From Chelydra serpentina (Eukaryota; Chordata; Testudines; Chelydridae): a stretch of 64,000 bases of DNA. Location of the stretch: contig JBAIAC010000023.1 in assembly GCA_037349315.1 (NCBI GenBank), positions 34,014,501 to 34,078,500 on the forward strand, read 5' to 3'. The position numbers and the translations under genes are program-made. Position 1 is the first letter of the stretch. Each line of letters begins with the position of its first letter. This document shows positions 8,384 to 64,000 of this stretch, piece after piece. Under the pieces are notes generated by a model. That model was not told the DNA's origin. It searched no databases and saw nothing but the letters and a program-made list of their open reading frames with translations.

Positions 8384-8679
8384 TGGGTACGTCTATACTT
8401 ACGCGTCCGGTCGGAGGCGTGCGATCGATGTTCTGGGTTCGATTTATCGCGTCTTGTCTAGACGCGATAAATCGAACCAGGAAGTGCTCCGTCGTCGACG
8501 CTGGTAATCCAGCTCGACGAACGGAGTAGGCGGAGTCGACGGGGGAGCCTGCGCGCTGCGTGTGGACCCCGGGTAAGTGCTTTTTCATTCGAACTAAGGT
8601 ACTTCGACTTCAGCTACGTTATTCACGTAGCTGAAGTTGCGTACCTTAGTTCGACAGGGGGGGTTAGTGTAGACCTGGG
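8384..8679. mobile_element. Harbinger-like MITE, copy 1
   Basis: The ends read TGGGTACGTCTATACTTACG and AGTGTAGACCTGGG, flanked by CTA on both sides (8381-8383 and 8680-8682), which fits a 3-bp target duplication of the PIF/Harbinger type. Inside are two strong hairpins. The first has 18-base perfect arms at 8436-8453 and 8461-8478 around a 7-base loop. The second has arms of about 30 bases around 8589-8654 with a TTATT loop. No transposase is encoded. A closely similar copy sits at 18357-18653. Confidence 0.8.
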
Positions 8680-17527: not shown

Positions 17528-18232
17528 GTACTTAAAATTAGCACAAATAACCATCAGGTGAGTATAAAGCCACTTTTTAAATGTAGGCCTCAAATTCAGA
17601 TCAACCTGGGCAAAAAAAACAAAAACAAAAAAAAAACTAACCCAGTTTGATTAAGAAAAGTCATTTAAAACCTTCTGTTATCCGTATTTGTAAACGTTAA
17701 GGATAACTAAAAACCATCTTTAAAATTAGGGCTGCATAAATGTTTGCATTCTAAAACACTTGCAATTGTAGCTGTGGCATTTCCTGGCTTTTAGTGTTTA
17801 ATCATGTCACCTTACAGTTTTCCTAACATAAAGTCCATATTCTGCTACCTTTCTTCTGGTTGAGAGTTATCTTACTCTGCAAGTAGCCCAACTAAGGTAA
17901 ATTTTGTGGAGTAAAGTACAGCTGAACATGAGTAAGGATGGCAGAATATGACTCAAAGTTATTGTATGCAAAGTATTTATTCTACAAACAAACCTATCTT
18001 AACCCACCACTCATGAGACTGACCTTTGTCATTTGCTTATTGGAACTGCATATAGGATCATAAAGGTAGAGTAGAACTGTGCTAATTACATTTAGAATAC
18101 TTCGGGTGCTCTCAGGTTTGCTGGTTGCCTAATAAGCATGGACTCATCTGCAGATTTAACAGCGTGTACCATGTAAATGCTTTGCAGTGATGACATAGAC
18201 AATCGCAATATCAGATTCATGCTGTAATGACG
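17528..18232. other. unassigned DNA with an A-rich run
   Basis: An A-rich run (AAAACAAAAACA-like) sits at about 17612-17637. The rest holds nothing I recognise. Confidence 0.45.
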
Positions 18233-18265
18233 TGTAATGCCGACAGACCCCGGTCATCAGTGGGT

Positions 18266-18321
18266 GGGATCAAACCTGGGACCACTGGAGCTAAATGCAT
18301 GAGTCTCTACTGCATGAGCTA
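18266..18321 (-). promoter_or_regulatory. tRNA-like Pol III A and B boxes inside the LTR
   Basis: On the minus strand TAGCTCATGCAG (18321-18310) resembles a tRNA A box and GGTTTGATCCC (18276-18266) matches a B box at all but one position. Start-to-start spacing is 45 bases, as in real tRNA genes. The right-hand LTR keeps the A box (18879-18868), but its B box has decayed to sequence around TGTTCAGTCGC. The 3' acceptor arm of a tRNA is not visible, so this is tRNA-derived rather than a tRNA gene. Promoter activity is inferred. Confidence 0.6.
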
Positions 18322-18356
18322 AAAGCCTCAGCGCAGACTCATTAATCTCTCTCTAA

Positions 18357-18653
18357 GGGTACGTCTATACTTACGCGTCCGGTCGGAGGCGCGGGATCGA
18401 TGTTCTGGGTTCGATTTATCGCGTCTTGTCTAGACGCGATAAATCGAACCAGGAAGTGCTCCGCCGTCAACGCTGGTAATCCAGCTCAACGAACGGAGTA
18501 GGTGGAGTCGACGGGGGGAGCCTGCGCGCCGCGTGTGGACCCCGGGTAAGTGCTTTTTCATTCGAACTAAGATAGTTCGACTTCAGCTACGTTATTCACG
18601 TAGCTGAAGTCGCGTATCTTAGTTCGAATTTCGGGGCTAGTGTAGACCAGCCC
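18357..18653. mobile_element. Harbinger-like MITE, copy 2, nested in the small LTR element
   Basis: The ends GGGTACGTCTATACTTACG and AGTGTAGACCAGCCC are flanked by TAA on both sides (18354-18356 and 18654-18656), the typical 3-bp PIF/Harbinger duplication. It splits the left LTR; the right LTR reads straight through the site. Both hairpins seen in copy 1 are preserved, with arms GGTTCGATTTATCGCGTC and its complement near 18409-18451. Confidence 0.88.
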
Positions 18654-18717
18654 TAAGTGGTCTCGGTGCCACTAGATGGGACAGAACACCACACCCAGAA
18701 GGTGTGTGTTTTACATA

Positions 18718-18724
18718 CTTCCCC
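18718..18724 (-). other. polypurine tract of the small LTR element
   Basis: On the minus strand GGGGAAG followed by TA abuts the second LTR, where plus-strand priming of an LTR element would start. It is short and identified by position. Confidence 0.5.
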
Positions 18725-18769
18725 TAACTGAGGAAGCATGTCCTGAGCGTCAGACATTTCCCACTTGAA

Positions 18770-18787
18770 ATCCCAGACGAGTCCCCA
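18770..18787 (-). other. primer binding site, tRNA-Pro type
   Basis: On the minus strand it reads TGGGGACTCGTCTGGGAT. The tRNA-Pro site used by murine-leukaemia-type retroviruses is TGGGGGCTCGTCCGGGAT, so 16 of 18 positions agree. It lies two bases inside the LTR at 18790-18992, the normal position. Confidence 0.82.
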
Positions 18788-18996
18788 CTTGTAACGCCGA
18801 CAGACCCTGGTCATCAGCGGGCGCGACTGAACAATAGGAACTCTGGAGCTAAATCCATGAGCCTCTACTGCATGAGCTAAAAGCCATATAGCTCTTAACT
18901 AAAGCTGTAGAGCAGACTCATTAATCTCTCTAAGTCGTCTTGGTGCCACTAGATGGGACAGAACATCACACCCAGAAGGTGTGTGGGTTACAGACG

Positions 18997-37568: not shown

Positions 37569-38294
37569 CTAGACCATCCCTGATAGACATTTATCTAACC
37601 TACTCTTAAATATCTCCAGAGATGGAGATTCCACAACCTCCCTGGACAGTTTATTCCAGCGTTTAACCACCCTGACAGTTAGGAACTTTTTCCTAATGTC
37701 CAACCTAAACCTCCCTTGCTGCAGTTTAAGCCCATTGCTTCTTGTTCTATCCTTAGAGGCTAAGATGAACAAGTTTTCTCCCTCCTCCTTATGACACCCT
37801 TTTAGATACCTGAAGACTGCTATCATGTCCCCTCTCAGTCTTCTCTTTTCCAAACTAAACAAACCCACTTCCTTCAGCCTTCCTTCATAGGTCATGTTCT
37901 CTAGACCCTTAATCATTCTTGTTGCTCTTCTCTGGACCCTCTCCAATTTCTCCACATCTTTCTTAAAACGTGGTGCCCAGAACTCTACACAATACTCCAG
38001 TTGAGGCCTAACAAGCGCAGAGTAGAGCGGAAGAATGACTTCTCGTGTCTTGCTCACAACACACCTGTTAATGCAGCCCAGAATCAAGTTTGCTTTTTTT
38101 GCAACAGCATCACACTGTTGACTCATATTTAGCTTGTGGTCCACTATAACCCCTAGATCCCTTTCTGCCGTACTCCTTCCTAGACAGTCTCCTCCCATTC
38201 TGTATGTGTGAAACTGATTGTTCCTACCTAAGTGGAGCACTTTGCATTTGTCCTTATTAAACTTCATCCTGTTTACCTCTGACCATTTCTCCAA
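37569..38294 (-). pseudogene. CR1 ORF2 piece: reverse transcriptase thumb and C-terminus
   Basis: A 241-codon frame in the same phase as the first piece. It contains KWSEVNRMKFN (residues 3-13), KCKVLHLGRNN (17-27), RDLGVIVDHKLNMS (about 45-58), the LVRPQLEYCVEFWAPRFKKD region and the closing WNKLSREVVESPSLEIFKSRLD. It ends at the natural stop. Together with the two upstream pieces it forms a protein broken only by single-base changes. Confidence 0.92.
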
Positions 38295-38314
38295 TTTGTC
38301 CAGATCATTTTGAA

Positions 38315-38818
38315 TTATACCCTATCCTCCAAAGCAGTTGCAATCCCTCCCAGTTTGGTATCATCTGCAAACTTAATAAGCGTACTTTCTATGCCAATAT
38401 CCAAGTCGTTGATGAAGATATTGAACAGAGCCGGTCCCAAAACAGACCCTTGCGGAACCCCACTCGTTATACCTTTCCAGCAGGATTGGGAACCATTAAT
38501 AACTACTCTCTGAGTACGGTTATCCAGCCAGTTGTGCACCCACCTTATAGTAGCCCCATCTAAGTTGTATTTCCCTAGTTTATTGATAAGAATATCATGC
38601 GAGACCGTATCAAATGCCTTACTAAAGTCTAGGTATACCACATCCACCGCTTCTCCCTTATCCACAAGACTCGTTATCCTATCAAAGAAAGCTATCAGAT
38701 TGGTTTGACATGATTTGTTCTTTACAAATCCATGCTGGCTATTCCCTATCACCTTACCACCTTCCAAGTGTTTGCAGATGATTTCCTTAATTACTTGCTC
38801 CATTATTTTCCCTGGCAC
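38315..38818 (-). pseudogene. CR1 ORF2 piece: reverse transcriptase palm
   Basis: A 167-codon frame holding the catalytic core. YLDFSKAFD lies at residues 62-70 with the first metal-binding aspartate, [10 protein letters not shown] at 120-129, and FADDTKLGG at 150-158 with the paired aspartates. CR1 uses FADD where many LINEs use YADD, so the active site is intact by sequence. The frame stops after EDRV because of a one-base loss near 38305. The start methionine is internal to the real protein and is not a true start. Confidence 0.92.
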
Positions 38819-38858
38819 AGAAGTTAAACTAACTGGTCTGTAGTTTCCTGGGTTGTTT

Positions 38859-39836
38859 TTATTTCCCTTTTTTATAGATGGGCACTATATTTGCCCTTTT
38901 CCAGTCTTCTGGAATCTCTCCTGTCTCCCATGATTTACCAAAGATAATAGCTAGAGGCTCAGATACCTCCTCTATTAGCTCCTTGAGTATTCTAGGATGG
39001 ATTTCATCAGGTCCTGGTGACTTGCAGGCATCTAACTTATCTAAGTGATTTTTAACTTGTTCTTTTTTTATTTTATCTTCTAAACCTTCCCCCTTCTCAT
39101 TAGCATTCACTATGTTAGGCATTCCTTCAGGCTTCTCGGTGAAGACCGAAACAAAGAAGTCATTAAGCATCTCTGCCATTTCCAAGTTTCCTGTTACTGT
39201 TTCTCCCTCCTCACTGAGTAGTGGGCCTACCCTGTCCTTGGTCTTCCTCTTGCTTCTAATGTATTGATAAAAAGTTTTCTTGTTTCCCTTTATTCCTGTA
39301 GCTAGTTTGAGCTCATTTTGTGCCTTTGCCTTTCTAATCTTGCCCCTGCATTCCCGTGTTGTTTGCCTATATTCATCCTTTGTAATTTGTCTTAGTTTCC
39401 ATTTTTTATATGACTCCTTTTTATTTTTTAGATCTTGCAAGATCTCGTGGTTAAGCCAAGGTGGTCTTTTGCCACATTTTCTATCTTTCCTACCCAGCGG
39501 AATAGTTTGCTTTTGGGCCCTTAATAGTGTCCCTTTGAAATACTGCCAGCTCTCCTCAGTTGTTTTTCCCCTCAGTCTTGATTCCCATGGGACCTTACCT
39601 ATCCGCTCTCTGAGCTTACCAAAATCCGCTTTCCTGAAATCCATTGTCTCTATTTTGCTGTACTCCCTTCTACCCTTCCTTAGAATTGTGAACTCTATGA
39701 TTTCATGATCACTTTCACCCACGATGCCTTCTACTTTCAAGTTCTCAACGAGTTCCTCCCTATTTGTTAAAATCAAATCTAGAACAGCTTTCCCCAGTAG
39801 CTTTCTCAACCTTCTGAAATAAAAAGTTGTCTGCAA
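38859..39836 (-). pseudogene. CR1 ORF2 piece: endonuclease end to start of reverse transcriptase
   Basis: A 325-codon frame. Residues 17-50 contain [15 protein letters not shown] and ESDHEIIEF, the last endonuclease motif with its SDH histidine. The middle (about 70-215) is the basic linker with WLNHEIL and FYQYIRSK. Residues 260-325 enter the reverse transcriptase with [15 protein letters not shown] and NIVPIYKKG. The frame ends in a stop because a six-A run near 38870 carries one A too many compared with the expected reading. Upstream, the GDFNY stretch at 39915 is in another frame, so a further frame change lies near 39800. Confidence 0.9.
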
Positions 39837-39929
39837 TGCAGTCCAAGAACTTATTGGATAGTCTGTGCCCCGCTGTGCTATTTTCCCAACATATATCTGG
39901 ATAGTTGAAGTCCCCCATCACCACCATCA

Positions 39930-63481: not shown

Positions 63482-63665
63482 GGGGAGGGATAGCTCAGTG
63501 GTTTGAGCATTAGCCTGCTAAACCCTGGGTTGTGAGTTCAATCCTTGAGGGGGCCATTTAGGGATCTGGGGCAAAAATCTGTCAGGGGACAGTACTTGGT
63601 CCTGCTAGTGAAGGCAGGGGACTGGATTCGATGATCTTTCAAGGTCCTTCCAGTTCTATGAGATA
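63482..63665 (+). mobile_element. tRNA-derived SINE, turtle type
   Basis: The head is tRNA-like: GGGGAGGGATAGCTCAGTGG, with A box TAGCTCAGTGG at 63491-63501 and B box GAGTTCAATCC at 63534-63544. The middle contains GGGCCATTTAGGGATCTGGG and GTACTTGGTCCTGCTAGTGA. The tail is CR1-like (GATGATCTTTCAAGGTCCTT followed by CCAGTTCTATGAGATA). SINEs of this build, using CR1-type LINEs for mobilisation, are known from hidden-necked turtles, which is the main reason for the organism call. No A tail is expected. Confidence 0.9.
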
Positions 63666-64000
63666 CGCATATCTCTGTATATTAACAAGTCTATAATGTG
63701 GGCAAGAAGATGCATATGTCCCGTTTCATTTTCTACATGCACGCCTCTTGGCAGGGAATCAAGATTGGAAAGACTCTACCCTTTGAAGATTTCTGAGAGC
63801 ATGTTATAAGTCCAGTATACCCCAACAATCTATCTAACAATGATAATGAATGGTTTAAAAAAAAGTCTTACTGGGCAGCAGTAGTTATCTGGTAGAGGTA
63901 TACAAGGTAGACACATTGCTACAAAAATATAACAGAAGACACTTTAGTGTCTTTGCCAGGTTTTTGCCCTAGGCAGAACTTGAACTGTCACTAGCAGCGT
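63666..64000. other. unassigned DNA
   Basis: No recognised feature up to the window end. Confidence 0.45.

What the first reader, a model, noticed from the sequence alone, without database searches (positions are those of the whole stretch)
18229..18996. Tiny LTR retroelement whose LTRs contain a tRNA-like Pol III promoter
Two LTRs (183 bases without the nested MITE, and 203 bases) flank only 74 bases, which hold a tRNA-Pro-type primer site and a polypurine run on the minus strand; a 4-bp duplication GACG surrounds the whole. The LTRs carry A and B boxes at true tRNA spacing (45 bases start to start). Short non-coding LTR elements (TRIMs) are best known in plants, where the Cassandra group carries a 5S-related Pol III region in its LTR. 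A vertebrate counterpart with a tRNA-related region and a gammaretrovirus-type primer site would be notable. Seen: ends, primer site, boxes, duplication. Inferred: a Pol III-driven, parasitised LTR life cycle.
Basis: partly seen in the sequence, partly recalled or inferred. Interest (0 to 1): 0.9.

Follow-up and report, generated by a model that had tools for sequence, protein, structure and literature searches.

The report
Tiny tRNA-like LTR retroelement in turtle
This is one old copy of a family of very short, gene-less retrotransposons in a turtle genome whose end repeats contain a tRNA-like control region, a kind already described in fish, coelacanth and other organisms but not, in what I read, in land vertebrates.

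Summary
On the minus strand the element reads GACG, 5' LTR (203), 74-nt interior (tRNA-Pro-type primer site, purine run), 3' LTR (183 without a nested MITE), GACG. It belongs to a family of its own 2.28-Gb genome, a turtle's by its CR1. An LTR probe finds 2,742 places and a purine-run/LTR junction probe 335; controls 0. Of 20 sampled LTRs, 7 sit in LTR-74-LTR elements, 11 have no interior, 2 could not be judged. Four-base duplications, primer sites up to 18/18 and A/B boxes exceed chance. This fits Helenus, Kojima's tRNA-bearing TRIMs (PMC10886601), whose listed chordates are fishes and coelacanth with His, Leu or Lys primers: a new member of a known kind, apparently the first from an amniote. 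At two loci a protease-like coding stretch, Gypsy-type by my reading, switches into the element at an 8-base shared word, which hints at the helper. Pol III transcription is untested; a T4 at the start of the tRNA-like stretch suggests where transcripts could end.

The parts
18993..18996 (.). target-site duplication GACG, 5' side of the element (sense = minus strand)
18229..18232 (.). target-site duplication GACG, 3' side of the element
18790..18992 (-). 5' LTR, 203 bases, TGTAAC...TTACA
18863..18879 (-). A-box-like stretch in the 5' LTR (2 of 13 scored positions differ)
18823..18833 (-). decayed B-box-like stretch in the 5' LTR (3 of 9 differ)
18862..18913 (-). 52-base near-palindrome whose 3' arm holds the T4 and the A box; 19 pairs, 92% of cells paired in 20 copies, no covariation
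18879..18882 (-). T4 run at the start of the tRNA-like stretch, 5' LTR
18716..18789 (-). 74-base non-coding interior
18770..18787 (-). primer-binding site, 16 of 18 to the complement of the tRNA-Pro 3' end (recalled 18-mer), 2 bases after the 5' LTR
   Evidence: up to 18 of 18 in other copies
18718..18725 (-). polypurine run AGGGGAAG just before the 3' LTR
18233..18715 (-). 3' LTR, 183 bases plus the nested MITE
18305..18321 (-). A box of the 3' LTR (2 of 13 differ)
18266..18276 (-). B box of the 3' LTR, GGTTTGATCCC (1 of 9 differs), 45 bases after the A box
18321..18324 (-). T4 run at the start of the tRNA-like stretch, 3' LTR: proposed Pol III terminator
   Evidence: role inferred
18357..18653 (.). 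nested MITE with TAA duplications, a later insertion and not part of the element

Best explanation
It is a decayed copy of a Helenus-type TRIM (TRIMp3) of a turtle: a gene-less LTR retrotransposon of about 480 bases whose LTR carries a tRNA-like internal promoter. Proposed cycle: RNA polymerase III starts near the tRNA-like stretch of the 5' LTR (inferred), runs through U5, primer site, interior, purine run and U3, and stops at the T4 at the start of the tRNA-like stretch of the 3' LTR (inferred). The RNA would then begin and end with the same short stretch, a ready-made R for strand transfer (inferred). Host tRNA-Pro primes reverse transcription (inferred from up to 18/18 primer sites). The proteins of an autonomous LTR element, by the chimeric loci more likely Gypsy-type than a class I ERV, copy the RNA and integrate it with a 4-bp duplication (the duplication is shown, the helper is not). 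Copies without interior are most simply products of LTR-LTR recombination (inferred).
For: Family: 39 other places at 80-86% to interior plus 5' LTR among 40 scored of 3,455 candidates; 20 of the 39 fetched, interior 73-75 nt in 20 of 20, primer site 14-18 of 18, 18 of 18 in three; 2,742 LTR probes and 335 purine-run/LTR junctions, controls 0; of 20 sampled LTRs 7 in LTR-74-LTR, 11 without interior, 2 not judged. Duplications: 7 of 17 exact and 7 of 17 with 3 of 4, against 0.7% (4) and 6.7% (3 or more) by chance, none of 5 or 6 bases; LTRs without interior 6 of 10 exact. tRNA-like: 3 or fewer of 22 box positions differ in 15 of 31 LTRs against 0 of 310 shuffles; alignment to tRNAs scores 39-50, each above its own shuffle maximum (31-40), in the four copies tested. 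T4 there in 29 of 31 LTR rows, a T4 elsewhere in 1 of 31, in 0 of 19 interiors. Of 9 places with LTR end plus exact primer site, 8 are the ordinary element and 1 is a chimera. Chimeras with a protease-like coding stretch at two loci, same junction.
Against: No transcript or Pol III data. Neither ARAGORN (bacterial code) nor the Rfam tRNA model sees a tRNA in the LTRs. In the second LTR sample only 5 of 16 rows have 3 or fewer box differences; the antisense strand reaches 4 differences in 6 of 31. The tRNA-like columns are no better conserved than the rest (0.854 against 0.883). Lack of T4 elsewhere is not unusual for one copy, and 13 of 201 four-column windows are as intact as the T4. The hairpin folds clearly better than shuffles in 3 of 5 copies (z -2.7 to -4.3), not in L034 (z -0.6), and shows no covariation. 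The chimeras could be DNA-level joins copied as a unit rather than template switches, Pfam names none of the coding pieces, and no TRIM LTR or tRNA-Pro site was found in the stretch upstream.
Confidence: 0.82

Rival explanations
1. An ordinary TRIM: a deletion derivative of a full-length LTR element, transcribed by Pol II; the tRNA-like stretch is a relic of a SINE insertion or a chance likeness with no promoter role.
For: No Pol III data; no tRNA-model hit in the LTRs; the tRNA-like columns are not better conserved than the rest of the LTR (0.854 against 0.883).
Against: A/B boxes at tRNA spacing recur across copies far above shuffles. No coding element with this LTR was seen: 8 of 9 places with LTR end plus exact primer site are the 74-nt element and the ninth keeps only 13 LTR bases; the 10 sampled LTRs without interior that were tested have at best 9 of 18 primer-site matches behind them.
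Confidence: 0.13
2. Same element, but the helper is a class I (gammaretrovirus-like) ERV, not a Gypsy-type element. (Odds lowered from even.)
For: A tRNA-Pro primer site is the classic one of gammaretrovirus-like ERVs, which also make 4-bp duplications (both recalled); the paper lists only His, Leu and Lys for vertebrate Helenus; no tRNA-Pro site was found in the sequence fetched upstream of the chimeras.
Against: PMC10886601 finds only Gypsy elements alike at the primer site of animal Helenus, one of them with tRNA-Pro; two loci join a protease-like coding stretch, Gypsy-type by my reading of its recalled motifs, to this element.
Confidence: 0.35
3. Two independent tRNA-SINE insertions side by side.
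For: Both units carry a tRNA-like stretch; turtles have tRNA SINEs (one, recognised from memory as Cry, at 63486-63690).
Against: The same LTR-74-LTR order with primer site and purine run recurs in other copies; duplications flank the whole; TG...CA ends; the Cry SINE head is not among the six closest sequences for any of the four LTR copies tested.
Confidence: 0.01

Closest known systems
Helenus (Kojima 2024, PMC10886601; TRIMp3)
   Same: TRIM of the same size class, tRNA-like stretch with A and B boxes in the LTRs, primer site and purine run between them, 4-bp duplications in animals, solo LTRs
   Different: Host is a turtle (the paper's chordate rows are coelacanth, sturgeon, paddlefish and ostariophysan fishes); tRNA-Pro primer site (vertebrate families there: His, Leu, Lys); closest tRNAs here Ala, Cys, Phe against recalled sequences. 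The published sequences (supplement, Repbase) could not be compared.
Cassandra (plants)
   Same: Pol III-type region in the LTR of a TRIM; promoters and terminators stated to lie in the LTRs (passages of PMC7215508)
   Different: 5S rRNA-derived, plants, primer site given there as TGGTATCAGAGC, unlike the tRNA-Pro site here
Ajax (nemerteans; PMC10886601)
   Same: TRIM with a small-RNA-derived Pol III-type promoter
   Different: 5S-derived, 5-bp duplications, tRNA-Leu primer site
Class I (gammaretrovirus-like) ERVs
   Same: tRNA-Pro primer site and 4-bp duplication (both recalled)
   Different: no coding region and no shared LTR found; likeness rests on the primer site and duplication length only

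Membership tests
Helenus / TRIMp3 | TRIM shorter than 1000 bp with two LTRs | tested here: met
   203-base LTR and 74-nt interior here; interior 73-75 nt in 20 of 20 fetched copies
Helenus / TRIMp3 | tRNA-derived sequence with A and B boxes in the LTR | tested here: met
   weaker in the sample (5 of 16 rows with 3 or fewer differences); no tRNA-model hit
Helenus / TRIMp3 | primer-binding site and polypurine tract between the LTRs | tested here: met
Helenus / TRIMp3 | 4-bp target-site duplication (animals) | tested here: met
Helenus / TRIMp3 | functional Pol III promoter (expected by the author, not shown for Helenus either) | not testable with these tools
   needs ChIP or RNA data
Helenus / TRIMp3 | common descent with described vertebrate Helenus | not tested
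Deletion derivative of a coding LTR element | coding parent with the same LTR | tested here: inconclusive
   not seen at 8 of 9 LTR-end-plus-primer-site places (the ninth is a chimera with 13 LTR bases) nor behind 17 of 20 sampled LTRs (7 with the 74-nt interior, 10 without primer site); L055, L067, L068 only partly judged; withheld stretches could hide one
tRNA SINE | single tRNA-headed unit without LTRs, primer site or fixed 4-bp duplications | tested here: not met

The most novel reading that the evidence does not exclude
A Pol III-transcribed satellite of a coding LTR retroelement in turtles: a SINE-like RNA with a tRNA promoter, a tRNA-Pro primer site and LTR ends, whose terminal repeat (R) is made by a T4 terminator set at the start of its own tRNA-like region, and which is reverse transcribed together with its helper's RNA, leaving template-switch chimeras with the helper's protease gene.
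Probability: 0.3. Interest if true: 0.75.

Novelty: new member of a known kind. Interest (0 to 1): 0.53.

Why it matters
It would extend tRNA-promoter LTR elements to amniotes, in thousands of LTR copies, and gives a vertebrate system in which one can ask which LTR machinery copies Pol III RNAs. The T4 placement offers a simple, testable answer to how a Pol III transcript could acquire the terminal repeat that LTR replication needs, and the chimeric loci offer a handle on the helper. Many copies with tRNA-like boxes could also confuse tRNA and SINE annotation of turtle genomes.

Tried and rejected
Rfam and ARAGORN tRNA searches of the LTRs: no tRNA; a tRNA-model match at L004 55-125 lies outside the LTR and below the gathering score. 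Exact patterns in viral and prokaryote collections: 0 matches, as expected. I first read the breaks in the 3' LTR matches as a MITE hot spot; the 20 fetched copies hold no MITE, so that reading was dropped (the other 19 were not looked at); L002-L005 carry the MITE because the first query contained it. Selection on the hairpin: no covariation. Origin of the tRNA-like stretch from the local Cry-type SINE: not favoured.

Rows left out: L031 (near-identical inverted neighbour of L030) from the LTR statistics. From the duplication count: L029, L033, L038, L040-L042, L045, L046, L048-L051 (3' end not in hand or not certain) and L031; the end of L003 was set by hand. From that: L055, L056, L062, L067, L068, L074. 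In one search four of the seven LTR stretches cut out were scored. Box scores cover 16 of 20 loci. Interior ends of L034 and L047 were set by hand.

A search with the interior alone (window 18712-18795) did not complete and was given up for the primer-site pattern; a wider primer-site pattern without LTR end did not complete either, so other tRNA-Pro elements of this genome are unexamined.

Full report
Structure. One search confirms the finding: GACG, LTR, 74-nt interior, LTR, GACG between 18229 and 18996, all reading on the minus strand. The left LTR is the 3' LTR and carries a 297-base MITE with TAA duplications. The LTRs agree at 159 of 181 aligned bases (K2P 0.133), so the insertion is old. 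The primer site at 18787-18770 matches the tRNA-Pro complement at 16 of 18, two bases after the 5' LTR, and a purine run precedes the 3' LTR.

Host. The 250-residue CR1 reading frame at 37569-38321 (minus) is 96% identical to a Chelydra serpentina protein, 89-91% to Pelodiscus, 91% to Chrysemys and 92% to Gopherus entries, against 51-72% for the bird entries among the 120 listed; a longer stork protein heads the list by E-value at 66%. With 2.28 Gb in 806 contigs the host is taken to be a cryptodiran turtle, an inference from one retroelement.

Family. The first search used the whole element and was swamped by the MITE, but gave two further LTR-interior-LTR copies (L002, L003) and two LTRs without interior (L004, L005); about 1 kb of each window flank did not match them. 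A second search with interior plus 5' LTR scored 40 of 3,455 candidates: this copy and 39 others at 80-86%. Twenty of the 39 were fetched. In all 20 the interior is 73-75 nt long; the primer site matches tRNA-Pro at 14-18 of 18, with 18 of 18 in L029, L035 and L044. None of the 20 fetched stretches holds the MITE. A 27-base LTR probe with up to 3 mismatches finds 2,742 places and a 27-base purine-run/LTR junction probe 335, with 0 in the reversed controls. Twenty LTRs spread over the listed places (all exact matches to the probe, so a well-preserved selection) were fetched: 7 lie in LTR-74-LTR elements, 11 have no interior on either side, and L067 and L068 cannot be judged downstream. Within-copy LTR identity (mean 0.854, 11 copies) is barely above between-copy identity (0.837, sd 0.026), as in an old burst.

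Duplications. Of 17 copies with both ends in hand (this one not counted), 7 have identical 4-base flanks, 7 share 3 of 4 and 3 share fewer; nearby random pairs give 0.7% for 4 and 6.7% for 3 or more; none has 5 or 6. Among 10 LTRs without interior, 6 are exact, 3 share 3 of 4 and 1 shares 2; of 4 further full copies 2 are exact and 2 share only 1.

tRNA-likeness. Scored against a recalled A/B-box consensus (22 positions), the 3' LTR of the window is the best site of the 64 kb, and 0 of 300 dinucleotide shuffles reach it. Over 31 LTRs (the window's 5' LTR, 19 5' LTRs and 11 3' LTRs of fetched copies), 15 have 3 or fewer differences and 21 have a spacing of exactly 45; of 310 simple shuffles none has 3 or fewer. 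The antisense strand reaches 4 differences in 6 of 31, because the stretch before the A box is an inverted near-copy of it. In the sample, 5 of 16 LTRs have 3 or fewer. Local alignment to 19 recalled human tRNAs and the local Cry-type SINE head gives 39-50 for four copies, each above its own shuffle maximum (31-40); Ala or Cys leads. No tRNA model matches the LTRs, which agrees with Kojima's remark that most Helenus cannot encode a working tRNA.

A possible way to make R. In 29 of 31 LTRs a T4 stands at the start of the tRNA-like stretch; one of the 31 has a T4 elsewhere and none of 19 interiors has one. Of 16 further LTRs 15 have one T4 at position 98-128, and the sixteenth, L064, is interrupted by the MITE. 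If Pol III starts just before it in the 5' LTR and stops at it in the 3' LTR, the RNA is terminally redundant. This is inference: T4 scarcity is ordinary for a single copy and 13 of 201 four-column windows are as intact. The stretch lies in a 19-pair near-palindrome paired in 92% of cells over 20 copies, without covariation; of five copies folded, three are clearly below shuffles and L034 is not.

Parent or helper. Nine places have an LTR end, two bases and an exact tRNA-Pro primer site. Eight are the ordinary element (five read, two, one within a match). The ninth, L051 on C42, has the primer site, the interior and a 3' LTR interrupted after about 132 bases, its tail lying further on in L076, but only the last 13 bases of a 5' LTR; before them runs a decayed coding stretch whose open frame carries a protease-like DTGSQ motif, Gypsy-type by my recalled reading. 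Pfam names none of six pieces. That stretch has five further matches in the genome. One, L077 on C48, has the same junction (91.9% on the coding side, 86% over 100 bases on the element side), though its 3' LTR is not seen beyond about 14 bases. Three others (L078-L080) go on with coding sequence; in L078 this reads TGTCGGCG at the junction, the same 8 bases as in the LTR end, while L080 differs there at one base and L079 at two or more; the fifth was not fetched. The two chimeric loci agree for roughly 2.6 kb upstream and then part, and no TRIM LTR and no tRNA-Pro site (best 12 of 18) was found there. The simplest reading is a template switch from the element's RNA to a coding element's RNA at a shared word, followed by copying of the chimera; a DNA-level join that then spread is not excluded. 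It moves me towards a Gypsy-type helper, Kojima's proposal for animals, and I changed the helper odds and raised interest slightly for this reason. No coding element with the same LTR was seen, but withheld stretches and two unanswered searches leave the question open.

Known kinds. Kojima 2024 (PMC10886601; abstract, methods, results, discussion and tables read, introduction not) names Helenus for TRIMs with tRNA-derived sequence in their LTRs and TRIMp3 for TRIMs with Pol III promoters. The element meets the Helenus features that could be tested. The paper's chordates are coelacanth, sturgeon, paddlefish and ostariophysan fishes; vertebrate primers are His, Leu and Lys. The words terminat, hairpin and inverted repeat were sought in it as whole words and not found, which does not cover inflected forms. 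A 2026 meeting report only restates the finding (passages). Search listings for turtle, reptile, amniote or Helenus cases (those of 11, 12 and 33 show only the top 25, 25 and 15) named none; Repbase and Dfam could not be searched, so a turtle entry under another name is possible. Cassandra was checked in passages of PMC7215508 and PMC10853983.

Noticed in passing
L051 (C42) 1-262 and L077 (C48) about 22-282: A protease-like coding stretch is joined to the last 13 LTR bases, primer site and interior of this element, at two loci with the same junction at an 8-base shared word: a possible template-switch chimera with the helper.
   Followed up: partly
18357-18653; 8385-8675; L002-L005, L064: A high-copy MITE with TAA duplications; a second copy in the window is 94% identical. 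In the LTRs of the window and L002 it sits at the same TTA/TAA; in L064 at another TAA and in the other orientation.
   Followed up: partly
L030 and L031 (C24 near 63,250,861 and 63,242,401): Two almost identical copies of the element with the same near flanks lie 8 kb apart in opposite orientation: an inverted duplication or an assembly effect.
   Followed up: no
window 63486-63690: A tRNA-headed SINE, recognised from memory as the turtle Cry type; 4 of 20 sampled 10-kb stretches hold matches to it.
   Followed up: partly
LTR positions about 81-130 of the family: An inverted near-copy of the A-box half precedes the tRNA-like stretch, making a hairpin; several 3' LTRs (L030, L035-L037, L043, L044 and the window copy) are roughly 14-28 bases shorter than their 5' partners, in the window copy by a gap just before the tRNA-like stretch.
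   Followed up: partly
window 37569-39917 (-): CR1 reverse transcriptase reading frames, 96% identical to a snapping turtle protein over 37569-38321.
   Followed up: partly
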